DNA of 17,410 nt from Chloroflexota bacterium (GTDB taxonomy: Bacteria > Chloroflexota > Limnocylindria > Limnocylindrales > CSP1-4). The stretch lies in assembly GCA_021786915.1 (NCBI GenBank), contig JAJYMP010000673.1, positions 1 to 17,410 on the forward strand, in the 5' to 3' direction. Within the stretch, counting starts at the first letter, position 1, and every line of letters starts with the position of its first letter. The notes beneath the pieces are model-generated. The model ran no database searches. It was not told the DNA's origin and saw only the letters and a list, made by a program, of their open reading frames with translations. This document shows positions 114-17,410 of the stretch, piece after piece. The position numbers and the translations under genes are program-made.

Positions 114-138
114 GCATCAATTCCATGCAGGCTGAATA

Positions 139-154
139 GCGGCCGCGAGGCCGC
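139..154 (+). other. 5'-leader hairpin with GCGA tetraloop
   Basis: GCGGCC (139-144) and GGCCGC (149-154) pair perfectly around the loop GCGA, a GNRA-type tetraloop. The stem ends 11 nt before the GGAGG ribosome binding site of the first gene. It could affect mRNA stability or translation; no function is shown by the sequence alone. Confidence 0.45.
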
Positions 155-175
155 GCGTCCCGAACGGAGGGTGGG

Positions 176-1798: not shown

Positions 1799-1799
1799 C

Positions 1800-3684: not shown

Positions 3685-3776
3685 CCGGTCCGCCGTGGTG
3701 CCCGGTTTGCGCGACGGTGGGCTGGGGCCACCAAATTGCGCGGGGCCGGCGAGACCCCGGGCGATTCGGTGGCCAC

Positions 3777-3890
3777 GGACCACCAAACCCCGCGAGACGG
3801 TGCCCACGGACCACCAAAGCCCGCGAGATGGCGCCGACGGACCACCAAACCCCGCGAGATGGTGCCGACGGACCACCAGTCCCGATCATC
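3777..3890. repeat. 31-bp tandem repeat, about 3.5 copies
   Basis: Units begin with GGACCACCA at 3777, 3808, 3839 and 3870, exactly 31 bp apart, with the last copy breaking off. Inside each full unit is a CCGCGAGA core; copies differ at a few positions. There are no spacers between units, so this is not a CRISPR array. A degenerate relative (GGCCACCAAATTGCGCGGGG) lies just upstream near 3726. The period is not a multiple of three, so a coding role is unlikely. Confidence 0.88.
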
Positions 3891-3989
3891 GGCGACGGTT
3901 CGCGGTGACTTTGTTGGCGTGACGCCACCGGGGGGCCTGGCGGGGAGCCCGGCGGGCCGCACGTCGTGCCGCACGGACTACCCGGAGTC

Positions 3990-5012: not shown

Positions 5013-5069
5013 TGCTCGTCGGGGCTCATCGCTGGAGGAGGGTTGGGGTGACGGTCATCGGGCAGGGGC

Positions 5070-6374
5070 TCAGTCGCCCGGCTTGCTGGGCGGAGTGACC
5101 GAGGCCGCGATCCCGGCTGCCGCCGCGATGACCGGATCGTCCGCCTCGGGCGCGACAGGCTCCTCGTCCTGCTCCTGCCGCCGTCGACGAACCTCGTCCA
5201 CGTCTTCGTCCAATCCCGGCACCGGCTCCTGCGGCCGCCGCACCGGGTGACCCTCGCGGGCCTGGAGCCGCCTCGTCGCCCGGTCTGCCACTGAGCCGCC
5301 CTCACGCGACCGCTCGAACCAGTGGAAGAAGAACGCCGAGAGCACCGCGGCGATCGGGATGCCGAAGATGGCGCCCGGGATGCCGGCCAGCTTCGACCCG
5401 ACCACGACCGAGCCCAGGACCACGATCGGGTGGATCCCGACCGCCCCGGCCATGAGCCGCGGCTGGAGGATGTTCATCGTGGCGAACCAGCCGACGCCCA
5501 TCACCGCCAGGACGACCACCGGCGTGGGGAACTGCGTCGACAGGAGCGCCACGGCCACCGGCGGCAGCCATGACAGGAACGGCCCGAAGAACGGGATGGC
5601 GTGGAGGACGCCGGCCGCGACCGAGGTCACGCTGCTGTAGGGCAGGCCGAACACGGCGTTCACGATCGCGGCCAGCACGCCGAAGACCAGGCCCATGACC
5701 AGCTGCGTGCGCAGGAACCCGCCGAAGGAGCGCGCCACGCTGGTCTGCACCAGGCGCGCGGTGTGGGTCCTGCCGGGCGGCACGAGCCGGTAGACGAACG
5801 CGAGGGCCTCCTCGCGGTCGATGACCAGGTACACCGATAGGATCGTGATGATCAGCACGTTGCCCAGCACGCCGATGCTGGCCACGGCCACCTGCTGGAG
5901 CGGCCCGACGAGTTGGACGGCCCATTGGTTGATCGTGTCCCAGATGGCGGGCGCCTGGCCCACGAGGTCCACCTTGAAGCCGACTCCCACCAGGCGCCCC
6001 TGCACATCGGCCAGCAGCTTCACGAACTGGTCGTAGAGGGGCTGGTCCTTGGGCAGCGCGCCGATCGACGAGGCCAGGACGCTCGAGACCTGGATCACGA
6101 GGCCGAGCAGCAGCCCGACCACCACGAGGTAGACCAGGAGCACCGCCGCGATGTCAGGCAGGCCGGGCACCAGCCGCTTGACCAGGCTGATGAGCGGGAG
6201 GACCGCGAACGCGAGCAGCCAGGCGAGGAAGAAGACGAGCAGGACGTCGCTGAACAGCGTCAGCACGCCCGCGACGTCGGCCACCACGACGAAGGCCAGC
6301 GCGACGACCGCGAGGACGAGGGCGGCGTCGAGGAGGCGGCGCTGCCGCTCGGAGAGCTCAACTGGCATGACCAC
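5070..6374 (-). CDS. AI-2E/PerM-family transporter (UPF0118)
   Basis: A 434-residue integral membrane protein of the AI-2E transporter (PerM/UPF0118) family. Three hydrophobic segments occupy residues of about 12-100. A soluble stretch of about 65 residues follows, then further membrane segments to about residue 345. The family hallmark is present: a membrane hairpin with HAIPFFGPFLSWLPP, followed by NILQPRLMAGAVGIHPIVV. Family members have been linked to autoinducer-2 export or to Na+/H+ antiport, so the substrate is not predictable. The last 80 or so residues are charged (Arg, Glu, Asp, Pro) and probably cytosolic. The start is either GTG 6374 or ATG 6368, two codons later; neither has a clear ribosome binding site. 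It sits between trpS and surE on the - strand. Confidence 0.9.
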   Translation of the reverse strand: MVMPVELSERQRRLLDAALVLAVVALAFVVVADVAGVLTLFSDVLLVFFLAWLLAFAVLPLISLVKRLVPGLPDIAAVLLVYLVVVGLLLGLVIQVSSVLASSIGALPKDQPLYDQFVKLLADVQGRLVGVGFKVDLVGQAPAIWDTINQWAVQLVGPLQQVAVASIGVLGNVLIITILSVYLVIDREEALAFVYRLVPPGRTHTARLVQTSVARSFGGFLRTQLVMGLVFGVLAAIVNAVFGLPYSSVTSVAAGVLHAIPFFGPFLSWLPPVAVALLSTQFPTPVVVLAVMGVGWFATMNILQPRLMAGAVGIHPIVVLGSVVVGSKLAGIPGAIFGIPIAAVLSAFFFHWFERSREGGSVADRATRRLQAREGHPVRRPQEPVPGLDEDVDEVRRRRQEQDEEPVAPEADDPVIAAAAGIAASVTPPSKPGD

Positions 6375-6435
6375 AGCCTACGACGCCTGGATCACGCCGT
6401 GCTTACCGCTTCGGCTCCAGTTGGTCGCCTCCCGA

Positions 6436-6484
6436 CCGAACGGAGCTGGACGAGCGCCCGCCCGCTGGGCTGGGCTCCGTTCGG
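6436..6484 (-). terminator. Candidate terminator hairpin downstream of trpS
   Basis: CCGAACGGAGC (6436-6446) and GCTCCGTTCGG (6474-6484) are perfect 11-bp inverted repeats around a 27-nt loop. The stem begins 3 nt after the trpS stop codon on the - strand. No T-tract follows, so it is not a classical intrinsic terminator. It may stabilise the trpS 3' end or end transcription in a U-less manner. The next gene starts about 60 nt further on. Confidence 0.5.
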
Positions 6485-6487
6485 CGC

Positions 6488-7507
6488 CTAGCGCAGGCCC
6501 ATCCTGGTTCGGACCTCGTCGATCGTCGCCTGGGCGAGGGGCTTGAGGCGGTCGGCGCCCGCTTCGAGGATCCCGTCGATCTCGGTCGGGTGCGCCATCA
6601 GCTCCGCGTAGCGCTCGCGCGCCGGGGCGTAGTGCTCGATGATCCGCGCGGCGAGCAGCTTCTTGGTGTCCACGCAGCCGGTCCGCGCCGTGCGCTCGCC
6701 GTCCTGGATCTCCTCCCAGTCGTCGCCGAAGAAGCGGTGCATCTGGCACACGTTGCAGACCTCGGGCCGGCCGGGGTCGGTGCGCAGGATCCGCTTCGTG
6801 TCGGTCACCATCGACATGACCTGCTTGCGGATCTCGTCGGGCGACCCCAGGATCTCGATCGTGTTCCTGACCGACTTGCTCATCTTCCGGACGCCGTCGG
6901 TGCCCAGCACCACGGGTGCCTCCGTGTAGACCGCCTCGGCCTCCGGGAACGTCACGCCGTACCGGTTGTTGAACGCGCGGACGATCTCGCGCGAGATCTC
7001 CAGGTGCGCCGCCTGGTCCTTGCCCACCGGGACGAGCCCGGCTTTGTAGATGGCGATGTCGGCCGCCTGGAGGACCGGGTACGTGAGCAGCCCGTGGTTG
7101 ATGTCGTCGGGCTGGTTCTGCTTCTTCTCCTTGTACGTCGGCGTCCGCTCGAGCCAGCTGACGGGCGTGACGGTGGCCAGGAGCCACATCAGCTCCGCGT
7201 GCTCGGGGCGGTGGCTCTGGACGAACAGCGTGCAGCGTTCGGGAGCCAGGCCCAGCGCGAGCAGGCTGGCCGCCATCTCTCGGGTCCGCTGGCGCATCAC
7301 GGCCGGGTCGTGCGTGCTCGTGAGGGCGTGGTAGTCGACGATGCAGTAGATCGCCTCGTACTCCCACTGGAGCATCACGTAGTTCCGGATCGCGCCCAGG
7401 TCGTTGCCCAGGTGCACGATGCCGGACGGCTGGATGCCCGAGAAGATCCGCGGGCGTGGCTTGGGCGCCTCCACCGGCGCCGGGGAGGGGAGCAGTTCGA
7501 TGGTCAT
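6488..7507 (-). CDS. trpS: Tryptophanyl-tRNA synthetase
   Basis: A class I aminoacyl-tRNA synthetase that charges tRNA-Trp with tryptophan at the expense of ATP. The HIGH-type motif is HLGN (residues 32-35) within SGIQPSGIVHLGND, and the KMSKS loop is RKMSKS (207-212). The tryptophan-pocket region LTYPVLQAADIAIYKA and VGKDQAAHLE are typical. Its 339 residues match the bacterial norm. Three cysteines (C251, C254, C278) sit where some TrpRS enzymes bind an iron-sulfur cluster, but the four-Cys pattern is not complete. The ATG at 7507 has no Shine-Dalgarno sequence; a TACACT -10 box ends 9 nt before it, suggesting a leaderless mRNA. A long inverted repeat follows the stop. Confidence 0.97.
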   Translation of the reverse strand: MTIELLPSPAPVEAPKPRPRIFSGIQPSGIVHLGNDLGAIRNYVMLQWEYEAIYCIVDYHALTSTHDPAVMRQRTREMAASLLALGLAPERCTLFVQSHRPEHAELMWLLATVTPVSWLERTPTYKEKKQNQPDDINHGLLTYPVLQAADIAIYKAGLVPVGKDQAAHLEISREIVRAFNNRYGVTFPEAEAVYTEAPVVLGTDGVRKMSKSVRNTIEILGSPDEIRKQVMSMVTDTKRILRTDPGRPEVCNVCQMHRFFGDDWEEIQDGERTARTGCVDTKKLLAARIIEHYAPARERYAELMAHPTEIDGILEAGADRLKPLAQATIDEVRTRMGLR

Positions 7508-7515
7508 TGGCGCGG

Positions 7516-7521
7516 AGTGTA
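7516..7521 (-). promoter_or_regulatory. -10 box of a probably leaderless trpS transcript
   Basis: On the - strand TACACT is followed by 8 nt and then the trpS ATG. A transcript starting about 7 nt after the box would begin at or within a base or two of the ATG. No Shine-Dalgarno sequence is present, which fits leaderless initiation. No good -35 box is visible. Confidence 0.45.
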
Positions 7522-7559
7522 ACGGAGCGCGCGGGGCCCGCGGGGCCGTTGGCGATCGC

Positions 7560-7988
7560 CTACCGGAGCCCGAGGATCTGGTCGGTGCGGCTGTCCGCGA
7601 CGCCGCCGTAGAAGCGGTCGAGGACCTGCTGCCAGCGCGGCTCGTCCGGGGCGGCGCGCAGGAACAGCGTCATCGACGAGCGGAGCTTCATGGCATCGAT
7701 GCCGCCGAAGATGGATTCGGCCGTGGCGCCGCGGGGAGCCGCCAGGACTGCATCCGCGCACTCGCGCAGGCGGGGGCCGACGACGGGGTGGGCGAGGTAG
7801 GCGCGCGCCTCGTCGAGCGAACGGATGGCGTAGTGCTGCGACATCCAGGTCTGACCGAGGCCGGCGACCTGCGGGAAGACGAACCACATCCAGTGGCCGG
7901 TCTTGCGGGCGGCCCGAAGCTCTCCGAGGATGCTCTCGTAGCCGCCCTGCTGGGCCTCGGCGAAGCGGTCAAGGTCGAACGGGTCCAT
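7560..7988 (-). CDS. DUF1810 family protein
   Basis: A 142-residue protein matching the DUF1810 family from end to end: DPFDLDRFAEAQ at the N-terminus, then HWMWFVFPQVAGLG, YAIRSLDEARAYLAHPVVGPRL, a central IFGGIDAMKLRSSMTLF and a terminal LDRFYGG. The frame stays open upstream to 8153, but family homology begins exactly at the ATG at 7988, so the longer version is rejected. The biochemical role of the family is not established, and some databases label it calpastatin without support. No signal peptide or membrane segment is visible. The start lacks a Shine-Dalgarno sequence; CACAAT 6 nt upstream is a weak -10 candidate. It is 52 nt upstream of trpS on the same strand, but trpS seems to have its own promoter. 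Confidence 0.88.
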   Translation of the reverse strand: MDPFDLDRFAEAQQGGYESILGELRAARKTGHWMWFVFPQVAGLGQTWMSQHYAIRSLDEARAYLAHPVVGPRLRECADAVLAAPRGATAESIFGGIDAMKLRSSMTLFLRAAPDEPRWQQVLDRFYGGVADSRTDQILGLR

Positions 7989-8061
7989 GTCGCGATTGTG
8001 CGCTTGCGGCCGCAGCGGCGACGCTCCCATCGCCGCCCCACGGCGCTCATCTCGGAAGACC

Positions 8062-8094
8062 CGCTCGTAGCGCCGCTCACCGGCGGTACGAGCG
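8062..8094. other. Imperfect hairpin in divergent promoter region
   Basis: CGCTCGTA (8062-8069) pairs with TACGAGCG (8087-8094). After one G-G mismatch, CGCCG (8071-8075) pairs with CGGCG (8081-8085) around a 5-nt loop. The 13 pairs make it one of the stronger local palindromes in the window. It could be an operator for a dimeric regulator or an RNA structure. Confidence 0.5.
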
Positions 8095-8125
8095 TAGCGC
8101 GCGGCGGCGTCGCGCTCTACACAGC

Positions 8126-8158
8126 CGAGTCGTGCAGTGCAGCTGGGGTGCACGCTCG
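8126..8158. other. Hairpin with single-base bulge in divergent promoter region
   Basis: CGAG (8126-8129), a bulged T, then CGTGCA (8131-8136) pair with TGCACG (8149-8154) and CTCG (8155-8158) around a 12-nt loop. It lies about 145 nt upstream of the ligase start and 32 nt from the neighbouring hairpin. Confidence 0.45.
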
Positions 8159-8210
8159 AGGATCATGCTGCCGAGACGGCCTGGTAGACGGCTGGCGCTT
8201 CCTGACGACA

Positions 8211-8303
8211 ATGGAGCCCATGTCGGTGAACGTCGCGCAGGCCATGGGTCGAACCGAAGACTTCGCGCATGGCCGCGGTTCGCGGGCGCGAGGCGCGGGC
8301 TGA
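8211..8303 (+). CDS. Possible 30-aa leader ORF overlapping the ligase start
   Basis: ATG at 8211 opens 30 codons that end in TGA at 8301-8303; the last A of the stop is the first base of the ligase ATG (TGATG). Such overlaps allow translational coupling. The peptide begins MEPMSVNVAQAMGRTEDF and ends in an Arg/Gly-rich stretch. I see no Shine-Dalgarno sequence before it and do not recognise it. In such GC-rich DNA a 30-codon ORF can arise by chance, so this is a weak call. Confidence 0.25.
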   Translation: MEPMSVNVAQAMGRTEDFAHGRGSRARGAG

Positions 8304-10309
8304 TGGCCAGGATGCCGGCCGACGAGCCGATCTTCGGTCGCGACGCGCCCGACGTCGCCTGGCGTCCCACGCCCGAGCACCTGGCGACGAGCCGCCTCGC
8401 CAGGTTTCTGCGCGCTGCGAGGGAGCCCTCGCTCGACGCCCTCCAGCGCCACGCCGCGGCGGACCCCGCATGGTTCTGGGGTGCCGCGGCCGACGACCTC
8501 GGGCTCGCCTGGGATCGGCGTCCCAGCTCGGTGCTCGACACGAGCAGGGGCCCCGAGTTCGCCCGCTGGTGGAGCGGCGGCTCGTTCAACTACGCGTCGG
8601 CGGCGCTCGAGCCCCGAGCGGCAGCGGACCCTGACGGTGAGGCACTGATCTGGGAGGGCGAGGACGGGGAGGTTCGGCAGCTGACGAATGCAGAGCTGCT
8701 GCGCGCGGTCGACGATGCCGCGAGGATGCTCGCGCGCCAGGGCGTGCGCGAGGGCGACCGGGTGGGCATCCTGCTGCCGATGCTGGTCGAGACCGTCGTC
8801 GCCGTCCTCGCGATCGGCCGGCTTCGGGCGATCTACACGCCGATCTTCTCGGGCTACGGCGCGCCCGCCATCGCGAGCCGCCTGGCCGACTGCGACACGA
8901 GCGTGCTCATCACGGCCGACGGCTTCCTGCGGCGCGGCAAGGCGGTCCGCCTCAAGGAGGTCGCCGACGCGGCCCTCGCCGACGCCCCGAGCGTGCGGCG
9001 CGTCATGGTCGTGCGGCGACTGGGCCAGCGGGCCGGAGACGTCCCCTGGGACCGCGACCGGGACCGCTGGTGGGACGAGGAGCTGGGCCTGGTCAGGGAG
9101 GCTGAGCCCGCGCCGGGCGGCGAGACCGACCCGGAGACGCCATACATGCTCATCTACACCTCGGGCACGACCGGGCGGCCGAAGGCGGCGGTCCACGTCC
9201 ACGGCGGCTTCCCGGTCAAGGGCGCGCAGGACCTCGCCCACAACTTCGACCTCGGGCCTGGCGACGCCCTGTTCTGGTACACGGACTTGGGCTGGATGAT
9301 GGGCCCGTGGGCCATCTCCGGGGCCCTGCTCCTCGGCGCGCGCCTCGTGATCTACGAGGGCGCCCCCGACTATCCAGGCCCGGACCGGATGTGGGCGATC
9401 GTCGAGCGCCACCGCGTCACCCATCTGGGGATCTCGCCGACGCTCGTGCGGGCGCTGATGGCCCATGGCGAGGAGCCCGTCAGGGGCCACGACCTCGGCT
9501 CGCTGCGCGTCCTGGGGTCCACCGGCGAGCCGTGGAACGACGAGTCGTGGTGGTGGTACTTCCGCGAGATCGGCGGCGGCCGCTGCCCGGTCATCAACTA
9601 CAGCGGCGGGACCGAGGTCAGCGGCGGGATCGTCGCCTGCAACCTGCTGACGCCCATCAAGCCCAGCTCGTTCAGCGGGCCGAGCGTGGGCATGGCCGCC
9701 GACGTCGTGGGGCCCGACGGCACGCCGGTCCGCGGCGCCTACGGCGAGCTGGCGATCCGCGCGCCCTGGCCCGGCATGACCCGCGGGTTCTGGCACGACC
9801 GCGACCGCTACCTCGCCAGCTACTGGGCTCGGCTGCCCGGCGTGTGGCTGCACGGGGACTGGGCCGAGATCGACGCCGACGGCTTCTGGTACATCCACGG
9901 CCGCTCCGACGACACGCTCAAGGTCGCCGGCAAGCGCGTCGGGCCGGCCGAGGTGGAGGGCGCCGCGTCGGCCCACCAGGCCGTGATCGAGGCGGCGGCC
10001 ATCGGCGTGCCAGACCCGGTCAAGGGCGAGGTGATCGTCGTCCTGTGCGTGCTGCGGGCGGGCGTGACCCCCGATCCCGACCTGCTGCGCGAGATCTCCG
10101 ACGGCGTGACGTTCAGCCTGGGAAAGACGCTCCGGCCGGAGCGGGTCGAGGTCGTGACGGCGCTGCCCAAGACCCGCTCGGGCAAGGTCATGCGGCGCGT
10201 CGCGCGTTCCTCCTGGCTCGGGCTGGACGCCGGGGACCTGTCATCGCTCGAGAACCCGGCGGTGGTCGAGGAGATCGGCCGGCTCGGCGCCGGGGGAGCG
10301 CGGTCCTAG
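8303..10309 (+). CDS. Acyl-CoA synthetase, acetyl-CoA synthetase-like (AMP-forming)
   Basis: A 668-residue adenylate-forming enzyme that activates a carboxylic acid with ATP and transfers it to CoA. The N-terminus resembles the acetyl-CoA synthetase N-terminal domain (FWGAAADDLGLAW, then WWSGGSFNYA). The ATP/AMP loop is YTSGTTGRPKA (about 285-295), the A5 motif is YSGGTE (433-438), the A7 region is HGDWAEIDADGFWYIHGRSD, and the catalytic Lys is in RSGKVMRR (K628). In acetate-specific enzymes the A5 motif reads WWQTE, and its second Trp closes the acyl pocket. Here that position is Gly, so a substrate larger than acetate is likely; this is inference. The ATG at 8303 is chosen because homology begins soon after it. 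ATG 8312 is an alternative, and the longer upstream frame looks non-coding. hom follows 86 nt later. Confidence 0.9.
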   Translation: MARMPADEPIFGRDAPDVAWRPTPEHLATSRLARFLRAAREPSLDALQRHAAADPAWFWGAAADDLGLAWDRRPSSVLDTSRGPEFARWWSGGSFNYASAALEPRAAADPDGEALIWEGEDGEVRQLTNAELLRAVDDAARMLARQGVREGDRVGILLPMLVETVVAVLAIGRLRAIYTPIFSGYGAPAIASRLADCDTSVLITADGFLRRGKAVRLKEVADAALADAPSVRRVMVVRRLGQRAGDVPWDRDRDRWWDEELGLVREAEPAPGGETDPETPYMLIYTSGTTGRPKAAVHVHGGFPVKGAQDLAHNFDLGPGDALFWYTDLGWMMGPWAISGALLLGARLVIYEGAPDYPGPDRMWAIVERHRVTHLGISPTLVRALMAHGEEPVRGHDLGSLRVLGSTGEPWNDESWWWYFREIGGGRCPVINYSGGTEVSGGIVACNLLTPIKPSSFSGPSVGMAADVVGPDGTPVRGAYGELAIRAPWPGMTRGFWHDRDRYLASYWARLPGVWLHGDWAEIDADGFWYIHGRSDDTLKVAGKRVGPAEVEGAASAHQAVIEAAAIGVPDPVKGEVIVVLCVLRAGVTPDPDLLREISDGVTFSLGKTLRPERVEVVTALPKTRSGKVMRRVARSSWLGLDAGDLSSLENPAVVEEIGRLGAGGARS

Positions 10310-10350
10310 CGCGGAGCGGGCCCCGGTCGCGGAGGGCGCCCCGCGTTCGC

Positions 10351-10356
10351 TACCAT
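10351..10356 (+). promoter_or_regulatory. Possible -10 box for hom
   Basis: TACCAT fits the TANNNT pattern 33-39 nt before the candidate hom start codons and would give a short leader that includes GGAG at 10379-10382. No -35 box is evident, and readthrough from the upstream ligase is equally possible. Confidence 0.3.
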
Positions 10357-10395
10357 CCCGGCGTCGCCCAAACCGTCCGGAGATCCCCGTTGAGC

Positions 10396-11514
10396 ATGCA
10401 GCCCCTGCGCGTCGGCGTCATCGGAGCCGGCACCGTCGGCCGAGAGGTCGTCCGCGCGTTCCTCGAGCGGTCGCCCCGCCTCGCCCCGGCGGACGGCAGG
10501 CCGCTCGTCCTCGCCGGCGTCGCCGAGAAGTTCACCGAGCGCGCCATCGCGCGTGGGATCCCGGCTGCGCTCCTCACCGACGCTCCCGCGCACCTCATCG
10601 CGAGCGGCGACTGCGACGTCATCGTGGAGACGATGGGCGGCGACGAGCCTGCCCACACGCTCGTTGCGGCGGCGCTCGAGGCGGGACTGGCCGTGGTCAC
10701 CGCGAACAAGCACATCGTGGCGCACCACGGGGCGGAGTTCGAGGCGCTCGCGCGGGGGACCGATTCGACCCTGCGCTTCGAGGCGGCCGTCGGCGGCGGC
10801 ATCCCGCTCCTGGGGCCCATCGCCCAAGACCTCGCCGGCGACCGCATCGCGCGGGTCCGCGGCATCCTGAACGGCACGACCAACTACATGCTGACCGCGA
10901 TGGCGCGCGACGGGCGCGACTACGCGGACGTCCTCCGCGAGGCCCAGGCGAAGGGCTACGCGGAGGCCGACCCGACCGCCGACGTCGAGGGGCTCGACGC
11001 GGTCAACAAGCTCGTCATCCTCGCCCGCCTCGCGTTCGGCGTGTGGATCTCGCCCGGCGCGGTGTCGAACTGCCCGGGCTCCACCAGCGGCAGGGCCGGC
11101 GCCCCGGGCATCACGGGCGTCACGGCGCAGGACGTGACGGCACTCGCCGCCGAGGGCCGCACGCTGCGTCTGATCGCCACGACGCGCCTCGCCGAGGACG
11201 GCGCGATCGAGGCTTCCGTCGTTCCCACCGCCGTGCCCGCCGGATCGCCGTTCGGCCGCTGCGACGGTGTGCTCAACCGGGTCGAGGTGGACGCGGAGCC
11301 GGTCGGTCGGGTCGCGTTCGAGGGGCCCGGCGCGGGCGGCGCGGCCGCGGGCGCCGCAGTGCTCTCGGACCTCGTGTCCATCGCCCGCGGGCTCGGCTCA
11401 ACGTGGGCCGGGGCCGTGCGCGCGGAGGCGTCGTCGGCTGGGGTCGTCGTCCGTCCCGTCGCCGGCGAGTGCGTCGCGGCGCCGTCGGGCGTCTGCTACC
11501 CGGTCGGGGACTGA
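10396..11514 (+). CDS. hom: Homoserine dehydrogenase, apparently without ACT domain
   Basis: It reduces aspartate semialdehyde to homoserine with NAD(P)H in the threonine/methionine branch of the aspartate pathway. The dinucleotide motif GAGTVGREV lies near residues 10-18. TANKHIVAHHG, the signature NGTTNYMLTAM and the substrate segment GYAEADPTADVEG follow. At 372 residues it is shorter than the roughly 430 of ACT-containing enzymes, and after the catalytic domain the chain ends without a recognisable ACT domain. Feedback control by threonine may therefore be weak or act elsewhere; this is inference. The start is ambiguous: ATG 10396 begins at homology, but a TTG at 10390 is better spaced from GGAG at 10379-10382 and would add two residues. 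thrB starts 5 nt after the stop, so the two form an operon. Confidence 0.95.
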   Translation: MQPLRVGVIGAGTVGREVVRAFLERSPRLAPADGRPLVLAGVAEKFTERAIARGIPAALLTDAPAHLIASGDCDVIVETMGGDEPAHTLVAAALEAGLAVVTANKHIVAHHGAEFEALARGTDSTLRFEAAVGGGIPLLGPIAQDLAGDRIARVRGILNGTTNYMLTAMARDGRDYADVLREAQAKGYAEADPTADVEGLDAVNKLVILARLAFGVWISPGAVSNCPGSTSGRAGAPGITGVTAQDVTALAAEGRTLRLIATTRLAEDGAIEASVVPTAVPAGSPFGRCDGVLNRVEVDAEPVGRVAFEGPGAGGAAAGAAVLSDLVSIARGLGSTWAGAVRAEASSAGVVVRPVAGECVAAPSGVCYPVGD

Positions 11515-11519
11515 CCGAC

Positions 11520-12509
11520 ATGGCCCGCCTCCCGGTCGCCGGCCACTGGCAGACCCACGGGGACTGGTCGTCGGTACTCGGCCGACGGCTGGTCGTTGAC
11601 GTGCCCGCCTCCACGGCCAATCTGGGCGCTGGGTACGACTGCCTTGGCCTCGCGTTGGATCTGTGCAACCGGGTCGAGGTCGAAGCGGTCGAGGCTGACG
11701 GGCTGGTCGAGCTGACAACCACCGGCGAGGGAGCCGGCGAACTGCGCGGCGAGCGGTCCGACCGCTTCGTCATGGGCCTTGAGGCGGCCATCGAGGCGCA
11801 GCTCGGGCCGCGGCCGCCGGCGATCGGCTGGAGGATCAGCGCGCACAACCGGATCCCGCTGTCGCGCGGCCTGGGGTCGTCGGCCGCGGCCGCAGTGGGC
11901 GGTGTGTGGGCGGGCAACGTGCTGGGCGGCGGGACGCTGTCGGTGCCGGTGATGCTGCGCCTGGCCACGGACATCGAGGGCCACCCGGACAACGCGTCGG
12001 CGGCGCTGCTGGGCGGCTTCGTCGTGTCGGCCCACCTGGGCCAGCGCGTGGAGGCGGTGCGGTTCGATGCGCCCCTCGGGCTGCGCGCCGTGCTGTTCAT
12101 CCCCGACCGACGGCTGTCCACCGCAGACATGCGCCGGGTACTCCCGGCCGAGGTGCCGCTGCGCGACGCCGTGTCCAACATGAGCCGCATCGCGATCGGC
12201 GTGGCGGGGATCGCGTCCGGCCGGTGGGGTCTCCTCGCGGATCTCACCGTCGACCGGATCCACGAGCCGTACCGCTCGGTCGCGTACCCGCAGCTGCCGC
12301 GACTGACTGGCGCGGCGCGGGCGGCCGGCGCGCTGGGCGCGTTCCTCTCGGGCGCGGGCTCGACCGTGCTGGCGTTCGTGGCGCCCGACGCCGACGCCGC
12401 GCCGGTCGAGGAGGCGCTGCGCGATGCCGCCGAGGGCGCGGGGCTGTCCGGGCGCACCGAGATCGTCGCGCCGCGCAACCGGGGCCCGGAGCTGGTCGAG
12501 GGAGCCTAG
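11520..12509 (+). CDS. thrB: Homoserine kinase
   Basis: A GHMP-family kinase that phosphorylates homoserine to O-phosphohomoserine, the threonine synthase substrate. The three GHMP motifs are present: PASTANLGAGYDCLG near the N-terminus, the ATP loop PLSRGLGSSAAAAVG in the middle, and GAFLSGAGSTVLAF near the C-terminus. The 329-residue length is slightly above the usual 300-320 because of about 23 residues (MARLPVAGHWQTHGDW...) before the first motif. The ATG at 11520 lies 5 nt after the hom stop, so coupled translation is likely. The usual partner thrC is not found next to it or elsewhere in the window. A convergent intergenic region with inverted repeats follows. Confidence 0.95.
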   Translation: MARLPVAGHWQTHGDWSSVLGRRLVVDVPASTANLGAGYDCLGLALDLCNRVEVEAVEADGLVELTTTGEGAGELRGERSDRFVMGLEAAIEAQLGPRPPAIGWRISAHNRIPLSRGLGSSAAAAVGGVWAGNVLGGGTLSVPVMLRLATDIEGHPDNASAALLGGFVVSAHLGQRVEAVRFDAPLGLRAVLFIPDRRLSTADMRRVLPAEVPLRDAVSNMSRIAIGVAGIASGRWGLLADLTVDRIHEPYRSVAYPQLPRLTGAARAAGALGAFLSGAGSTVLAFVAPDADAAPVEEALRDAAEGAGLSGRTEIVAPRNRGPELVEGA

Positions 12510-12793
12510 CGCCGGCACGTCGTCGGGCAGCGCAATGCGGCGCCTCGTCGGAGCGCGAGTCGCCAAGTCGTCGGCGCCGCAGGTGCCACATCGTCGGCAC
12601 ATCATTCCGCAGCGCGAGTCGCCACAGACTCGATTCGCGGTTCGGCGAGCGCGCCACGTGCCACGCATCCGACCTTGGGCGCGCCGCCCACGCTCGACGC
12701 GCCCCGAATCGAGTCGGACGCGACTCGTGCGGACCTCCGTGGCGGGCGCCACGAGGGACGGGATTCGACGGCAGGGTGGGGTGCCGAACGACG
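12510..12793. other. Convergent intergenic region rich in short repeats and hairpins
   Basis: This 284-bp gap lies between the convergent stops of thrB and the PNPOx-like gene. I see no gene. It contains a 14-bp direct repeat AGCGCGAGTCGCCA (12552-12565 and 12611-12624) and TCGTCGG four times at 23-25 bp spacing (12520, 12545, 12568, 12591). It also has a 7-bp hairpin CGAGTCG/CGACTCG (12710-12727) and an 11-bp inverted repeat (12627-12637 with 12705-12715). GANTC pentamers occur eight times between 12557 and 12766. Some of these may be terminator structures for both genes. Confidence 0.65.
12627..12715. repeat. 11-bp inverted repeat in convergent intergenic region
   Basis: GACTCGATTCG (12627-12637) is the exact reverse complement of CGAATCGAGTC (12705-12715), with 67 nt between them. 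The right arm overlaps a local hairpin CGAGTCG-GACG-CGACTCG (12710-12727), so the two pairings exclude each other. Confidence 0.6.
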
Positions 12794-13471
12794 CTAGGGG
12801 ACGCGCACCACCGGCGGCGGCATGCCCGGCTGGACGAACTCGTCGGGCTCGGGCTCTCCGCGGACGGTCTGGACGGGGATCAGCCCGGCCCACACCGGCC
12901 ACGTCTCATCGCCCTCGTCGTCATGGGCGCCCTCGTCTCGCACCTTAGCGGAGGCCTCGGCGAGGTCGACGTACATGACGCCGGTCTCCTTGCGCTCCTT
13001 CTCGGTCATCGGCCGGAGCTGCGCCCAGCGGCCCGGGTAGAGCGACTCGACCAGGCTCTCGAGCGCGTGCTCGACGTGGTCGACCTCGGTCACGAGGTGC
13101 GCCGTGCCCAGAACCATCACTGAGCGGAAGTTGACCGAGTGGTTCGTCGCGGAGCGAGCCAGCACCAGCCCGTCGAGGTTGTACACCGTCACGCAGACCG
13201 GGCTCGCGTCTGCCGTCCGGAGCAGGCGACTGCCCGCCGACCCGTGCCAGTACAGGCGGTCGCCATCGCGCCAGACGTTGGTCGGCACGGCGTACGGCTG
13301 GCCGTCCCCGACGAACGCGACCACGCCGACGACCGCCTCGTCGATGATCGCGTCGATCGTGGCGCGGTCATGCCGGCCGCGCATCGGCTTCCGGCGAAGG
13401 CGGACGCGGTCGCTGGCGGGTGGCGTGACGTCGGCCGGCTGGTTCGAGGAGGCAGGCGAGACGTCGCTCAC
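12794..13471 (-). CDS. Pyridoxamine 5'-phosphate oxidase-like, FMN-binding family protein
   Basis: A 225-residue protein of the split-barrel FMN-binding superfamily (PNPOx-like, near the NimA-type group). Residues of about 23-60 (RVRLRRKPMRGRHDRATIDAI...) followed by VGVVAFVGDGQPYAVPTN are the typical opening helix and first strands. WHGSAGSRLL and VCVTVYNLDGLVLARS are the next barrel strands. The first 20 or so residues are Ser/Pro-rich and probably disordered, as is the acidic patch near DEGAHDDEGDET. Such proteins bind FMN, F420 or haem; which one cannot be told here. The GTG start at 13471 overlaps the TGA of the upstream 77-aa gene as GTGA, so the pair is translationally coupled. It ends opposite thrB. 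Confidence 0.86.
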   Translation of the reverse strand: MSDVSPASSNQPADVTPPASDRVRLRRKPMRGRHDRATIDAIIDEAVVGVVAFVGDGQPYAVPTNVWRDGDRLYWHGSAGSRLLRTADASPVCVTVYNLDGLVLARSATNHSVNFRSVMVLGTAHLVTEVDHVEHALESLVESLYPGRWAQLRPMTEKERKETGVMYVDLAEASAKVRDEGAHDDEGDETWPVWAGLIPVQTVRGEPEPDEFVQPGMPPPVVRVP

Positions 13472-13701
13472 CGGCGGTACAGGATCCAGAGCGACAAGGC
13501 GACCGCGTAGGAGGGGGCGCCGTAGCCCATCTGCGGCTGCTGCATCCCCATCTGGGTGCCGATGCCGCCAATGTTGGCGATCCGCCAGCCGTCGGCCGCC
13601 CGCCGCGAGGCGTCGGCTGCCACCCAGTCCCAGAGCGCGTCGCCGAGCGAGGTGTCGGCCGTGACCAGCAGCTGGTCGTCGCCGATGAGCCGTTCCTTCA
13701 T
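13468..13701 (-). CDS. Small protein of unknown function (77 aa)
   Basis: I do not recognise this family. The gene is credible because its ATG at 13701 follows a strong Shine-Dalgarno sequence (AAGGAGG on the - strand, 13706-13712) and because its stop overlaps the GTG of the PNPOx-like gene by GTGA. The first half (MKERLIGDDQLLVTADTSLG, then DALWDWVAADASRRAADGW) looks like a compact alpha/beta unit. The middle is Gly/Met/Gln-rich (IGGIGTQMGMQQPQMGYG), and the end is a short hydrophobic segment followed by YRR. The hydrophobic end is short for a membrane helix but might serve as a weak anchor. Coupling suggests a role linked to the flavin-type protein; this is inference. Confidence 0.72.
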   Translation of the reverse strand: MKERLIGDDQLLVTADTSLGDALWDWVAADASRRAADGWRIANIGGIGTQMGMQQPQMGYGAPSYAVALSLWILYRR

Positions 13702-13705
13702 GGCC

Positions 13706-13712
13706 CCTCCTT
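13706..13712 (-). promoter_or_regulatory. Strong ribosome binding site of the 77-aa gene
   Basis: AAGGAGG on the - strand lies 4 nt before the ATG at 13701. It is the best Shine-Dalgarno match in the window and supports the small gene. A TAGGCT at 13729-13734 (- strand) is a possible -10 box for this two-gene unit. Confidence 0.75.
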
Positions 13713-13782
13713 GTTGGTGTGGACCCCCAGCCTAGCGCGACGGCGGTTCGCGGACTGCCCGCTCGTCGCGCAGGACCTTTCC

Positions 13783-14274
13783 CTAGACGACCAGCAGCTC
13801 GTCAGGCTCGGCCGTCACGCCGAAACCGCCGAAGAGCGTCCGGTATCGGATGGTGAGGATCGGGCCGGCCCCGCCCTCTTCGGGCTGCGGCGCCGTCGTT
13901 CCCGCCCCGCCGAAGACGGCCAGGCCGCGCAACCGCACCCGCCAGTCCTCGGGCACGCGCAGATGCATCCCGCCGAAGACGGTCCAGACCTCGAGGTGCG
14001 CCCCGGCCGGGTCGAGCGACGCCCCTCGGAGGTCGATGTCGGCGCCGCCCTGCCACGAGATGAGCCGCCCGCCGCGGAAGGCCTTCGCCTCCGACCGGAA
14101 CTTGCGAGCCCGCAGGATCGTGGCCAGATCGAGCTCGTCGTCCTCGGGCTCCGCGTCGTCTGGGAACTGGTCGCGCTTGGCCATGGCGACGGCTGTGGAC
14201 ACCATCGATGCCGCGGTGACCGCGATCGTGAACGCGGCCAGCAGCCGGACGAAGAATCGGACCAGGCGCACCAT
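13783..14274 (-). CDS. Membrane-anchored LiaF-like C-terminal domain protein
   Basis: With the ATG at 14274 the protein has 163 residues. Residues 5-31 form one hydrophobic membrane segment. An acidic linker (PDDAEPEDDELD) follows, then a beta-rich domain from about residue 65 to the end. That domain has the repeated FGG pattern of the LiaF/YvqF-type cell-wall-stress response domain: VFGGMHLRVPEDWRVRL (99-115), VFGGAG (120-125) and LFGGFGV (147-153). Such domains sense or modulate envelope stress in some bacteria; a similar role here is inference. AGGAGG lies 3 nt before the ATG and 6 nt before the next codon, GTG 14271, so either may be the start. A longer frame upstream overlaps the 76-aa gene and is not credible. 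It is third in the operon with the dienelactone hydrolase. Confidence 0.8.
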   Translation of the reverse strand: MVRLVRFFVRLLAAFTIAVTAASMVSTAVAMAKRDQFPDDAEPEDDELDLATILRARKFRSEAKAFRGGRLISWQGGADIDLRGASLDPAGAHLEVWTVFGGMHLRVPEDWRVRLRGLAVFGGAGTTAPQPEEGGAGPILTIRYRTLFGGFGVTAEPDELLVV

Positions 14275-14293
14275 CGGCCTCCTGTTCGCTGTG

Positions 14294-14524
14294 CTAGGCA
14301 TCGTCGGCGCGCCGCTCCCCTCCCTGCGCGGGCGGCGTCCACGACCGGTCGGCGTACCGCATCTGGCGCGCCAGCAGCTCGTCGGACAGGCGGACGGCCT
14401 CCTCGCGCAGCAGCGCTCGCTCGTGCTCGGCATCCTCGGCCGCGGCTTCGACCGGGTCCAGAGGCGCTCGGCCTGTCCCTTCGGCCTCCCCGCCGCCCCC
14501 GAACATCCGACGCAGGAAGCTCAT
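14294..14524 (-). CDS. Small charged protein of unknown function (76 aa)
   Basis: I do not recognise a named family. The N-terminus MSFLRRMFGGGG is a short amphipathic, basic segment of the kind that can touch membranes. Residues of about 20-58 (DPVEAAAEDAEHERALLREE, then AVRLSDELLARQMRY) are predicted helical and acidic; the C-terminus is polar and disordered. The ATG at 14524 is the last in a chain of ATGA overlaps made by a 14-bp tandem repeat. A GAGGG core in the last repeat lies 7 nt upstream as ribosome binding site. The LiaF-like gene starts 19 nt after its stop, so it belongs to one operon with the flanking genes. Confidence 0.7.
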   Translation of the reverse strand: MSFLRRMFGGGGEAEGTGRAPLDPVEAAAEDAEHERALLREEAVRLSDELLARQMRYADRSWTPPAQGGERRADDA

Positions 14525-14604
14525 CGCACGGCCCTCATCGCACGGCCCTCATCGCACGGCCCTCATCGCACGGCCCTCATCGCACGGCCCTCATCGCACG
14601 ACCC
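14521..14604 (-). repeat. 14-bp tandem repeat, six copies, filling the operon spacer
   Basis: On the - strand the unit is GGGCCGTGCGATGA. Five copies are identical (14521-14590) and the sixth, next to the dienelactone hydrolase, has one change (GGGTCGTGCGATGA, 14591-14604). The array fills the whole space between the TGA of the upstream gene (14605-14607) and the ATG of the 76-aa gene (14524). Each unit contains GAGGG across the junction and ATGA, so every copy offers a ribosome binding site, a start and a stop. Confidence 0.95.
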
Positions 14605-14608
14605 TCAT
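14521..14608 (-). other. Chain of six overlapping 5-residue mini-ORFs
   Basis: Starts on the - strand at 14608, 14594, 14580, 14566, 14552 and 14538 each read ATG, four codons, TGA (18 nt). The first encodes MRVVR and the other five MRAVR. Each stop shares ATGA with the next start, and the final stop shares ATGA with the 76-aa gene start at 14524. The first ATG itself overlaps the dienelactone hydrolase stop (AAATGA). The 18-nt ORF minus the 4-nt overlap equals the 14-nt repeat period. Whether ribosomes use the chain is unknown. Confidence 0.6.
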
Positions 14609-15366
14609 TTCGCGACCCCCATGAAGCCCAGCGTCTCCGACCACGCGCGATCGCTCGCCTCGGCGAACTCGGTGGCCTTGCGGTCGAAGAAGGAGTGCGG
14701 AGCACCATCGTACGTGCTCAGCCGGTGCTCGATCCCAGCTTCGGTCAGCGCGCGCCCGAAGGCGGCCACGACGTCTGCCGTGATGCCCTCGTCCGCGCCG
14801 CCGAAGATGCCCAGCACCGGGCAGGTGAAGGTGGAGGCGACGTCGGCCGGGGCGGGCGTGTCGTTGCGGGCCGATCCTGTCGGCCAGCCGTAGAAGCCGA
14901 TGACGCCCGCGAGGCTGAGATCCGCCATGCCGGCGGTGAGGAAGGCCAGTCGGCCGCCGAAGCAGAAGCCCGTGGTGTAGAGGCGCTCGACGCTGGCGAC
15001 CTGGCGGAGGCGCGCGGCGGCCGCTTGGATGTCGGCCGTCAGGCCCGCGTAGGTCGTGGCGGCGACATGCGGCATGTACTCGAAGTCCGGCCCCCGGTCG
15101 CCGATGCCGGCGGTGCGCCCGAAGAAGTCGATGGCGATCGCGTCCACGCCGTGCTCGGCGAACCGCTCGGCCAGCTCCTTGTAGTACGTGTGGAGGCCGC
15201 GGACGTCGGGCAGGATGACGATCCCGGCGCCAGTGGGATGCGCAGCACGGGCGACGTAGGCGGCGAAGCGGTTGCCGTCGGCGGCCTCCAGCTCCACCTC
15301 CTGCGCATCGCGCATGCCAGACGGGTCGGGGACGATGGGGGGTCGCGAGTCGTGATCGAAGCACAT
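14605..15366 (-). CDS. Dienelactone hydrolase family protein
   Basis: A 253-residue alpha/beta hydrolase of the dienelactone hydrolase family, probably cytosolic. The catalytic triad is visible: Cys135 in GFCFGG, Asp192 in GADEG and His224 in PHSF. ILPDVRGLH (51-59) near the N-terminus and IDFFGRT (79-85) are family segments. Characterised members open enol-lactones in chloroaromatic breakdown, but most relatives act on other esters, and no aromatic-degradation gene is nearby, so the substrate is unknown. The ATG at 15366 (MCFDHDSRPP) is chosen because a GGAG core lies 7 nt upstream. The frame stays open further to 15582 but that part is Arg/Pro-rich and not family-like. It is first of three - strand genes and is joined to the next by the 14-bp repeat array. 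Confidence 0.92.
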   Translation of the reverse strand: MCFDHDSRPPIVPDPSGMRDAQEVELEAADGNRFAAYVARAAHPTGAGIVILPDVRGLHTYYKELAERFAEHGVDAIAIDFFGRTAGIGDRGPDFEYMPHVAATTYAGLTADIQAAAARLRQVASVERLYTTGFCFGGRLAFLTAGMADLSLAGVIGFYGWPTGSARNDTPAPADVASTFTCPVLGIFGGADEGITADVVAAFGRALTEAGIEHRLSTYDGAPHSFFDRKATEFAEASDRAWSETLGFMGVAK

Positions 15367-15591
15367 GGCAGGTCTCCGGGGCGGGGCGCTTGGCTCGGGT
15401 TCGGCCGATTGTGGCGCAGGGCGCCGTATCGGGTCTCCGGCGGCGATGCGCGCTCGGTACCCGGACCGACGGGCGGCCCTCGGCACAGGCGGCCATGGCG
15501 CGCGATCGGGGCTGTCCGGATCAGGCACGGCACGAGCGAGACTCCCAGCAGGGACAACTGGCAGATAAGGCGCGCCAGCCATCCTCTCTGC
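15367..15591. other. Divergent promoter region of dienelactone hydrolase and HTH gene
   Basis: This 225-bp gap separates divergent genes. On the - strand CACAAT (15408-15413) is a weak -10 candidate for the hydrolase. On the + strand GATAAG (15564-15569) is a weak one for the HTH gene. GGTCTCCGG occurs twice (15371 and 15435). No gene is evident. Confidence 0.4.
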
Positions 15592-16347
15592 ATGGATCTC
15601 GATCGGATCGGCCGCGGCGTGCGGGCGCTGCGGCGCCGACGCGGCTGGAGGCAGTCGGATCTTGCGGCGTCCGCCAACGTCTCACGCTCGGTCGTGGGCA
15701 GGATCGAGAACGGCGAGTGTCGCGAGGTCGCAATCGGTGTCCTCGAGCGGGTCGTATCGGCGGTGGGTGGAACGCTCGATGTCTTCGTGCGCTACCAGGG
15801 TGAGGCGCTGGACCGGCTGCTGGATGAGTCGCACGCCCGACTCGTCGAGGCAGTCGTGGCCCGGCTTCGGCTCCTCGGCTGGGAGGTTGCTGTCGAGGTC
15901 ACCTTCTCGCGGTATGGCGAGCGCGGTTCGATCGACGTGCTGGCCTGGCACCCGCCGACAAGGGCACTGGCGGTGTTCGAGATGAAGTCGGTCACGCCGG
16001 ACATGCAGGCGATGTTGGCCGGGCTCGACCGTAAGGTTCGGCTCGCACCCACCATCGCCCGCGAGCGCGGCTGGGAGCCGAGCTGCGTCGCACGGATCCT
16101 CGTCCTGGGCGACACCAGCACGAATCGCCGGCGGCTCGCCCGTTTCGCTGGTACGGCGGGGGCCGTGCTTCCGGCGGGGACGTGGCAGGTACGCCACTGG
16201 GTCGAGGATCCGACAGCGCCGGGCGTCTCCGGGATCTGGTTTCTTGCAGATGACCGCCCGGCGGACCGTACGGGCGGCGGTCGGCACAGGGTTCGCGTCG
16301 CGGATGGCGGCCCACGCACGGGAGGAGCGCGGGATTCCGCCACATGA
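15592..16347 (+). CDS. XRE-type HTH protein fused to a PD-(D/E)XK-like domain
   Basis: A 251-residue protein. Residues of about 6-62 form a Cro/C1-type helix-turn-helix, with WRQSDLAASANVSRSVVGRI as the DNA-binding core. Residues of about 74-205 look like a PD-(D/E)XK nuclease fold. A helix carries Glu86, a strand holds GSIDVLAW with Asp115, and after a short turn comes FEMKS with Glu130 and Lys132: the E...D...ExK arrangement of this superfamily. A conserved-looking LVLGDTSTNRRRLARFAG segment follows (171-187). The fold call is mine from the motif pattern. The last 30 residues are Arg/Gly-rich. It could be a regulator that keeps an inactive nuclease fold or a DNA-cutting regulator. The ATG at 15592 begins where HTH homology starts; there is no clear ribosome binding site. 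No toxin, methylase or phage gene adjoins it. Confidence 0.8.
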   Translation: MDLDRIGRGVRALRRRRGWRQSDLAASANVSRSVVGRIENGECREVAIGVLERVVSAVGGTLDVFVRYQGEALDRLLDESHARLVEAVVARLRLLGWEVAVEVTFSRYGERGSIDVLAWHPPTRALAVFEMKSVTPDMQAMLAGLDRKVRLAPTIARERGWEPSCVARILVLGDTSTNRRRLARFAGTAGAVLPAGTWQVRHWVEDPTAPGVSGIWFLADDRPADRTGGGRHRVRVADGGPRTGGARDSAT

Positions 16348-16364
16348 CCGCCGGGCGGGCCGTA
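16250..16364. repeat. 21-bp imperfect direct repeat around the HTH gene 3' end
   Basis: The 21-bp segment at 16250-16270 recurs at 16344-16364 with two mismatches; both begin ATGACCGCC and end CCGTA. The second copy spans the stop codon of the HTH gene. The first also carries a 7-bp inverted repeat with the bases that follow (CCGCCCG at 16254-16260, CGGGCGG at 16271-16277). Confidence 0.5.
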
Positions 16365-16607
16365 TCCGAAGACGTCTCGGACAAGGCCCGCAGCACGGGC
16401 ATCTGGGGGCGACGGGCGCGGCAGTTGTCGCAGCCGCCCGCCACGCGGACCTCGGGCGGAAACGGGCGACGTAGCGACCGCACGGCGGGCAAGTGGCGGA
16501 ATCAGCGGCGGCTGGCACGAAGACGCGCGACCCCGGCCAACGCCGGCGCGCCGCAACCGAACCGAAACGGCGGGATCACCGCGTCGGACCGCTAGAATTG
16601 CCCGGCT
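16348..16607 (+). other. Intergenic region before lysC
   Basis: This 260-bp gap is GC-rich and without a credible gene. It contains the second copy of the 21-bp repeat at its start and the probable lysC -10 box at its end. I see no T-box, lysine riboswitch or leader-peptide attenuator, although a lysine riboswitch cannot be excluded by eye. Confidence 0.5.
16593..16598 (+). promoter_or_regulatory. -10 box of a probably leaderless lysC transcript
   Basis: TAGAAT is followed by 9 nt and then the lysC ATG at 16608. There is no Shine-Dalgarno sequence between them. The spacing matches the trpS case and suggests that transcription begins at or next to the ATG. No convincing -35 box is visible. 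Confidence 0.5.
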
Positions 16608-17410
16608 ATGTCCACCCCCCTCGTCGTCATGAAGTTCGGCGGCTCGTCCGTCGCGGGCGCCGAGCGCATCAAGCGCGTCGCACGGCGGATCGCGCGCGAG
16701 CGCGCGGCGGGCTCCAACCTCGTCGTGATCGTGTCCGCCATGGGCGACACCACCGACGAGCTCCTCGCCCTCGCCGCTGCCATCACCGATGATCCCGACC
16801 CGCGCGAGCTCGACGTCCTCCTCGCCACCGGCGAGCACCAGAGCGCCACGCTGGTCTCGATGGCCCTCCACTCGCTCGGCGTCGCGGCGATCAGCCTCAC
16901 CGGCCCGCAGGCGGGCATCACCACGGACGGCACCTACGGCAAGGCGCGCATCGCGGGCATCGACCCGAGGCGGGTCAACGCGGAGATCGCGGCCGGCAAG
17001 GTCGTGATCGTCGCCGGCTTCCAGGGCATGAGCTCCAAGGGCGTGGCCGCGCTCGAGGAAACCGCGACCGCGAGCGACGTCCACGCGGCCGAGATCACCA
17101 CCCTCGGCCGGGGCGGCTCGGACACCACCGCCGTCGCGCTCGCCGCCCAGCTGCGCGCCGACCGCTGCCAGATCTTCACCGACGTCAAGGGGATCTACAC
17201 CGCGGATCCGCGGATCGCCCCGGACGCCCGCCAGCTGTCCGTCATCGGCTACGAGGAGATGATGGAGCTCGCCCACCAGGGCGCCCAGGTGATGCAGGTG
17301 CGCGCCGTGGAGCTGGGCTGGGTCAACGACGTCGTCATCGAGGTCCTCAGCTCGTTCGAGGACGCCCCCGGCACGCTCATCAAGGAGGACCCGCTCGTGG
17401 AGCAGAGGAA
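16608..17410 (+). CDS. lysC: Aspartokinase, 3' end beyond window
   Basis: It phosphorylates aspartate, the first step toward lysine, threonine and methionine. 267 complete codons are present and the frame runs open to the window edge. Motifs: KFGGSSVA near the N-terminus (residues 9-16), SAMGDTTDELL, the TGEHQSATLVS segment, TLGRGGSDTTAVALA and TDVKGIYTADPR in the catalytic domain, then the start of the ACT region (VVIEVLSSFEDAPGTLI). Between FQG (138-140) and TTLGRGGSDTT there are 23 residues, about 15 more than I know from Corynebacterium or Bacillus enzymes. The insert is Ala/Glu/Thr-rich (KGVAALEETATASDVHAAE). The ATG lacks a Shine-Dalgarno sequence and follows a -10 box by 9 nt. hom and thrB of the same pathway lie 4 kb upstream on the same strand. 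Confidence 0.95.
   Translation, partial: MSTPLVVMKFGGSSVAGAERIKRVARRIARERAAGSNLVVIVSAMGDTTDELLALAAAITDDPDPRELDVLLATGEHQSATLVSMALHSLGVAAISLTGPQAGITTDGTYGKARIAGIDPRRVNAEIAAGKVVIVAGFQGMSSKGVAALEETATASDVHAAEITTLGRGGSDTTAVALAAQLRADRCQIFTDVKGIYTADPRIAPDARQLSVIGYEEMMELAHQGAQVMQVRAVELGWVNDVVIEVLSSFEDAPGTLIKEDPLVEQR

What the first reader, a model, noticed from the sequence alone, without database searches (positions are those of the whole stretch)
14521..14608. A 14-bp tandem repeat builds a relay of six overlapping mini-ORFs between two operon genes
The spacer between the dienelactone hydrolase and the 76-aa gene is entirely six copies of GGGCCGTGCGATGA (one copy with a single change) on the - strand. 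Each copy holds a GAGGG ribosome-binding core 7 nt before an ATG, and each ATG opens ATG-AGG-GCC-GTG-CGA-TGA (MRAVR, or MRVVR in the first), whose stop overlaps the next ATG as ATGA. Eighteen nt minus a 4-nt overlap gives exactly the 14-nt period. The chain begins inside the hydrolase stop (AAATGA) and ends on the start of the 76-aa gene. Copy number can therefore change by slippage without damaging either gene, while altering how many termination-reinitiation steps a ribosome must pass. This could be a tunable translational coupler, or a neutral minisatellite grown from one ATGA overlap.
Basis: partly seen in the sequence, partly recalled or inferred. Interest (0 to 1): 0.82.

Follow-up and report, generated by a model that had tools for sequence, protein, structure and literature searches.

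The report
Chain of tiny start-stop reading frames
Between two bacterial genes lies a short repeat in which every copy is a five-codon reading frame that ends exactly where the next begins; comparison with related genomes suggests that such chains grow by accidental copying of a gene's own start and persist mainly when the copy length keeps ribosomes on track.

Summary
In detail: six 14-nt units (14521-14604, minus strand) form six 18-nt mini-ORFs from the dienelactone hydrolase (DLH) stop to the 76-aa gene start. A syntenic sister genome (about 83-93% identical) and two further relatives have a single spacer there (14, 14 and 11 nt); eight more distant loci have a direct 4-nt overlap. Six copies are thus private to this lineage as far as sampled, and nothing supports copy-number tuning. 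The relay geometry itself recurs. In 177 genomes of the class, arrays of four RTGA at an exact period gave 75 genome hits for periods 11/14/17/20 (2 mod 3) and 8 for 10/13/16/19 (1 mod 3); the same pattern read backwards gave 17 and 21. Arrays at co-directional junctions or on a gene start: 37 versus 1. Flanking pairs include purF-purM and ABC permeases. Units often resemble the downstream gene's start. Best reading: small tandem duplications of a start region, kept mainly when each extra start leads ribosomes back to the true start. Closest known: mycobacterial MIRUs. Translation was not measured, part of the bias is unexplained, and viral contigs showed no such excess.

The parts
14605..15366 (-). 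Upstream gene: dienelactone hydrolase family protein, 253 aa, stop TGA at 14607-14605
   Evidence: Pfam DLH E 2e-36; homologues over the full length
14521..14604 (-). Six tandem 14-nt units; the first carries one change (GGGTC for GGGCC)
14591..14608 (-). Mini-ORF 1 (MRVVR), ATG overlapping the DLH stop
   Evidence: sequence
14521..14594 (-). Mini-ORFs 2 to 6 (MRAVR), each overlapping the next by ATGA; the last TGA overlaps the ATG at 14524
   Evidence: sequence
14294..14524 (-). Downstream gene: 76-aa protein of unknown function, conserved next to DLH in 14 of the 24 related loci read
   Evidence: no Pfam family

Best explanation
A stop-start relay made by tandem duplication. (1) The ancestral DLH/76-aa junction was a direct 4-nt NTGA overlap that couples translation (inferred from more distant relatives). 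(2) In the window's clade a short insertion of 3n+2 nt, most likely a duplicate of the 76-aa gene's own first 14 nt, left one mini-ORF ending exactly on the true start (one-spacer state shown in three relatives; duplication inferred). (3) In this lineage the unit multiplied to six copies (shown by comparison; slippage inferred). (4) It could do so because a 3n+2 period returns a ribosome that initiates on an extra ATG to the next ATG and finally to the true start, whereas a 3n+1 period would send it out of frame into the gene (inferred from the class-wide frame bias). So the array probably keeps the two genes coupled across an 80-nt gap by serial termination-reinitiation. It is a tolerated, translation-filtered passenger rather than a dial.
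For: One spacer in L001, L002, L003 and direct overlap in 8 of 14 loci with the gene pair. The window's first unit matches the 76-aa gene's first 14 nt at 11 of 14; 3 of 127 other RTGAG starts match its nine variable bases as well. purF-purM in the same clade: direct overlap, one 11-nt unit, three 11-nt units, or 20 nt; in G016 the unit repeats purM's first 11 nt at 10 of 11. Genomes with RTGA arrays, periods 2 mod 3 versus 1 mod 3: 75 versus 8, backward control 17 versus 21, Fisher p 1.7e-7. Arrays at junctions or gene starts 37 versus 1; 15 run from an upstream stop to the next start. The prediction that period 20 exceeds 19 was written down first: 10 versus 3 genomes. In reporters, +14 nt cut E. 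coli reinitiation by 40-80%, +38 nt nearly abolished it, and 15 nt of upstream gene sufficed (PMC10666635, passages).
Against: No expression or profiling data. Each unit has its own GAGGG, so independent initiation at the last ATG is possible. Copy number is not conserved. One 16-nt (1 mod 3), eight-RTGA array lies at a junction (L155). Arrays outside junctions also lean to 2 mod 3 (20 versus 6 without periods 10 and 11); junction versus other is not significant by itself (p 0.07). Ordinary short gaps lean the same way (92 versus 40). Periods 20 and 19 alone do not stand out from their backward controls (8 and 6 genomes). The unit's likeness to the gene start is weak in L001, L002 and L003 (9 of 14, 7 of 14, 6 of 11). 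Genomes were not corrected for kinship. Viral contigs gave no excess.
Confidence: 0.6

Rival explanations
1. Neutral minisatellite: slippage between the two ATGAG words flanking the ancestral 14-nt spacer multiplied it, and the relay is an automatic by-product that ribosomes do not use; the last GAGGG-ATG starts the 76-aa gene independently.
For: Copy number 6 versus 1 in the sister. The window has other intergenic arrays at 3510-3878, and the sister has a different 36-nt array in the corresponding spacer. No unusual RNA fold. L024 has its own 41-nt array at the DLH stop.
Against: A neutral process should not prefer periods 2 mod 3 at junctions (37 versus 1); backward controls show no such preference (17 versus 21).
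Confidence: 0.27
2. Tunable coupler: copy number sets how many termination-reinitiation steps must succeed and so sets 76-aa gene output; variation is adaptive.
For: Geometry allows copy-number change without coding damage; reinitiation is lossy per step in reporters (PMC10666635).
Against: No conserved multi-copy state in L001, L002 or L003; no data on variation within the population or on expression; the function of the 76-aa protein is unknown.
Confidence: 0.08
3. Not a translational feature: a protein-binding direct repeat, or an assembly artefact.
For: 15 of 46 period-11 RTGA arrays lie between divergent genes, as expected of binding sites spaced by one helical turn (recalled analogy to PHO boxes). 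No reads were available.
Against: The window array has period 14 and runs exactly from a stop to a start inside a co-directional pair; an artefact does not explain the one-hop relays of the relatives.
Confidence: 0.05

Closest known systems
Mycobacterial interspersed repetitive units, MIRUs (Supply et al. 1997, known to me only as cited in review PMC12548453, passages)
   Same: A repeat placed at a start codon whose internal ORF overlaps the following gene by 4 nt, so that coupling survives insertion.
   Different: MIRUs are longer (recalled: about 50-100 bp), share a family sequence and appear mobile; here the unit is 14 nt, looks like a copy of the local gene start, and no dispersal was seen in what could be searched.
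Overlapping gene pairs coupled by termination-reinitiation (PMC6728339 and PMC10666635, passages)
   Same: Each hop is an ATGA overlap of the commonest type.
   Different: Six hops in series through five-codon ORFs instead of one between two genes.
Bacterial minisatellites
   Same: Short near-perfect tandem copies, number differing between close genomes.
   Different: At junctions the period class looks constrained to 2 mod 3, and every copy is a stop-start unit.

Membership tests
MIRU | Insertion at a start codon with an internal ORF coupled to the gene by a 4-nt overlap | tested here: met
   Geometry; the feature as stated in PMC12548453
MIRU | Unit of about 50-100 bp belonging to one sequence family (recalled) | tested here: not met
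   Unit is 14 nt
MIRU | Mobile, dispersed to many loci of the genome | tested here: inconclusive
   Only the locus itself matches in the window; own genome not held; the three-ATGA pattern at period 14 is absent from the first 80 related loci
Termination-reinitiation gene pair | Stop and start overlap by 4 nt or lie very close | tested here: met
   True for each of the hops; the two genes themselves are 80 nt apart
Termination-reinitiation gene pair | Downstream translation depends on upstream translation | not testable with these tools
   Needs reporters or profiling
Bacterial minisatellite / VNTR | Head-to-tail copies of a short unit | tested here: met
Bacterial minisatellite / VNTR | Copy number varies between strains | tested here: inconclusive
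   1 versus 6 between two syntenic genomes; no strains or reads of the same species
Phase-variable contingency repeat | Copy-number change switches a reading frame on or off | tested here: not met
   Both genes lie outside the array and keep their frames at any copy number
Leader-peptide attenuator | Unusually stable or alternative RNA hairpins | tested here: not met
   14490-14640 minus strand: z +1.42, 185 of 200 shuffles fold at least as well; alternative folds were not examined

The most novel reading that the evidence does not exclude
Stop-start relays are a general, repeatedly evolving operon element: serial termination-reinitiation through ORFs of about five to eight codons lets a coupled junction grow in 3n+2 nt steps without losing coupling, natural arrays record which frames the ribosome tolerates, and at some junctions the number of hops has been recruited to set subunit ratios.
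Probability: 0.22. Interest if true: 0.8.

Novelty: new variant of a known kind. Interest (0 to 1): 0.6.

Why it matters
If the frame filter is real, genome sequence alone gives evidence that ribosomes reinitiate serially through ORFs of about five codons in uncultured bacteria, and it offers a simple testable rule (period 2 mod 3) for how coupled operon junctions can lengthen. It would place MIRUs as the long, mobile case of a broader class that arises by small duplications of gene starts.

Tried and rejected
By my reading of the printed examples period 14 there is swollen by 7-nt repeats. Arrays with open frames of 80 or more codons on both sides were 5 of 150 and 1 of 87, no difference by GC class. 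Generality beyond this class is not shown.

RNA structure as the function: rejected. Three ATGA at period 14 in the first 80 related loci: none.

That the spacer is a relic of an older DLH tail was considered by reasoning only and set aside for a duplicated gene start, because of purM and the 11 of 14 match.

Single-unit survey: 786 co-directional pairs in 1.62 Mb; RTGA stop plus RTGA start at spacing 5-40 gave 9, 3 and 1 pairs (2, 0, 1 mod 3) against 83, 67, 39 for the rest; not significant (2 versus 1 mod 3, p 0.13). One of the three 0 mod 3 pairs is itself a three-unit 11-nt relay.

Rows dropped or doubtful: purF-purM was read in 67 of 90 loci, 21 lacked my purM motif and 2 my purF motif, and one of the 67 (L552) is a misreading. 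The 90 loci are the 30 given plus 60 fetched, out of 136 genomes with a match. In one search two GTGA microsatellites were set aside, arrays of identical sequence were counted once (L141/L143), and L166 and L565 each contribute two readings of one array. Gene calls come from a simple codon-usage script of mine. The controls are RTGAG starts only, which understates chance likeness for units that begin RTGAC or RTGAT.

Full report
What is there. On the minus strand the DLH gene (15366-14605; Pfam DLH) ends AAATGA. Six 14-nt units follow (14604-14521) and end on the ATG (14524) of a 76-aa gene. Each unit holds GAGGG and, seven bases on, an ATG. Every ATG opens an 18-nt frame whose TGA overlaps the next ATG.

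Where it comes from. Those DLH and 76-aa homologues that carry an organism name in the listed hits are labelled Chloroflexota, Chloroflexi or Candidatus Limnocylindrales. No whole genome is held for the window. The genome behind L001 (G001) is a syntenic sister: window 105-17410 aligns in order, with small gaps, at 83-93% nucleotide identity.

The same junction elsewhere. I read the sequence after the DLH match in 24 of the 80 loci; 14 have the 76-aa homologue next to it. L001 has one 14-nt spacer ending TTGA, L002 one of 14 nt ending ATGA, L003 one of 11 nt ending GTGA; in all three the spacer is one mini-ORF from the DLH stop to the 76-aa start. L006-L010, L018, L021 and L022 have a direct 4-nt overlap. 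L013, L015 and L017 have gaps of 3, 2 and 1 nt. L004 and L005, close relatives, lack the gene there, and their genomes gave no match. The order direct overlap, one hop, six hops is an inference; six hops were seen in the window only. The unit next to DLH keeps a T that L001 also has, so the other five probably descend from a changed copy. Read from its ATG, the first unit matches the first 14 nt of the 76-aa gene at 11 of 14; 3 of 127 other RTGAG gene starts match its nine variable bases as well. For L001, L002 and L003 the match is only 9 of 14, 7 of 14 and 6 of 11.

Is the geometry special? I searched 177 genomes of the class of G001 for four RTGA (ATGA or GTGA) at an exact period; the tool adds a control, the pattern read backwards. 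Genomes with a match, and control genomes by my count of the listed rows: period 10, 0 and 6; 11, 38 and 2; 13, 3 and 6; 14, 12 and 1; 16, 2 and 3; 17, 15 and 6. I then wrote down the prediction that 20 would exceed 19: 20 gave 10 and 8, 19 gave 3 and 6. Sums: 75 versus 8 forward, 17 versus 21 backward, Fisher p 1.7e-7; without periods 10 and 11, 37 versus 8 and 15 versus 15, p 0.0035. One genome with a GTGA microsatellite is among the hits of 16 and of 20. Species are not independent, and no correction was made.

Where the arrays lie. With a simple codon-usage gene caller (contexts; table) I classed 95 arrays, two microsatellites excluded. At co-directional junctions or exactly on a gene start: 15, 8, 9 and 5 for periods 11, 14, 17 and 20 (37 in all), and 0, 0, 1, 0 for periods 10, 13, 16 and 19. 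Fifteen of the 37 run from an upstream stop that is the first or second RTGA to a start that is the last RTGA. The one 1 mod 3 case (L155, 16 nt, eight RTGA) also lies at a junction, a clear exception. Period 11 has a second population, 15 arrays between divergent genes, which look like promoter direct repeats. Arrays in other places also lean to 2 mod 3 (20 versus 6 without periods 10 and 11), which I cannot fully explain; junction against other is p 0.07. Five arrays sit on a gene start without a co-directional gene close upstream, all with periods 2 mod 3.

Flanking genes were printed for twelve arrays. By recognition, not by a family search, they include purF-purM (L130), aspartate kinase and semialdehyde dehydrogenase (L107), spermidine-type and sugar-type ABC permease pairs (L132, L104), CoA-transferase subunits (L101), ABC-2 permeases (L131) and succinate dehydrogenase subunits (L203). 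Overlapping and closely spaced pairs are reported to be enriched in complex subunits (PMC10666635, passages).

How such junctions evolve. Among 67 of 90 purF-purM junctions that I could read, in the window's clade G012 has a direct GTGA overlap; G001, G015 and G016 one 11-nt unit; G002 three; G003, G004 and G005 20 nt. In G016 the unit repeats purM's first 11 nt with one change. Among the 67 rows I saw no RTGA-to-RTGA spacing of 1 mod 3. These cases are related by descent and may be only two or three events. For the 29 arrays whose last RTGA is the called start, the last unit matches its own gene's start at 0.56 of spacer positions against 0.35 for other starts; seven exceed all 127 controls. 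Small tandem duplications of a start region are thus a likely source.

Mechanism. A duplication of 3n+2 nt around a coupled start leaves both genes intact and adds a start whose ORF ends on the true start. A 3n+1 duplication also leaves both genes intact, but a ribosome using the extra start runs out of frame into the gene. The two differ only if the extra start is used, so the bias is indirect evidence that it is. Reporter work found that in E. coli a +14-nt gap lowered reinitiation by 40-80%, +38 nt nearly abolished it, and the last 15 nt of the upstream gene suffice (PMC10666635, passages). An 18-nt mini-ORF meets that length, and an 80-nt gap without hops would be expected to uncouple the genes. 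The same paper cites a synthetic construct that reinitiated across 73 nt, so that expectation is not certain. Ordinary gaps of 5-40 nt spacing in these genomes already lean to 2 mod 3 (92 versus 40); against that baseline 22 of 23 (periods 14, 17, 20 versus 13, 16, 19) still has p 0.003.

Known relatives. The 2025 review PMC12548453 (passages) states that MIRUs insert at start codons so that their ORF is coupled with a -4 nt spacing. Searches combining tandem repeats, MIRUs, minisatellites, coupling and reinitiation listed, judged by titles and abstract starts, no paper on short relays of this kind. Most subscription papers are outside that library, and the 1997 MIRU paper was not read. I file this as a new variant of a known kind.

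Verdict. Observation confirmed. The relay idea has indirect comparative support, the dial idea none. Viral contigs gave no support for wider generality.

Noticed in passing
3510-3878: Three further intergenic tandem arrays (13/20/33-nt, 23-nt and 31-nt units) between the amine oxidase and surE-like genes; the sister G001 has a different array (36 nt, 4.1 copies) in about the corresponding spacer.
   Followed up: partly
14294-14300: The 76-aa protein ends four to five residues before its closest homologues (80-81 aa), whose C-terminal ends continue past the window's stop.
   Followed up: no
L024 7646-7793: An unrelated DLH gene ends in its own 41-nt tandem array (3.6 copies, 99%) that includes the stop codon.
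   Followed up: no
L127-L129, L135, L136, L144, L153, L195, L197: RTGA direct repeats of period 11 between divergent genes, all facing the downstream gene; candidate binding sites of a response regulator.
   Followed up: no
L507, L511, L515, L518 and similar purF-purM loci: Junctions reading ATGAGTGA, an 8-nt overlap with two nested stop-start words; 8-nt overlaps made up 20 of 786 co-directional pairs.
   Followed up: no
L155: Eight RTGA at period 16 (1 mod 3) at a co-directional junction, the exception to the frame rule.
   Followed up: partly
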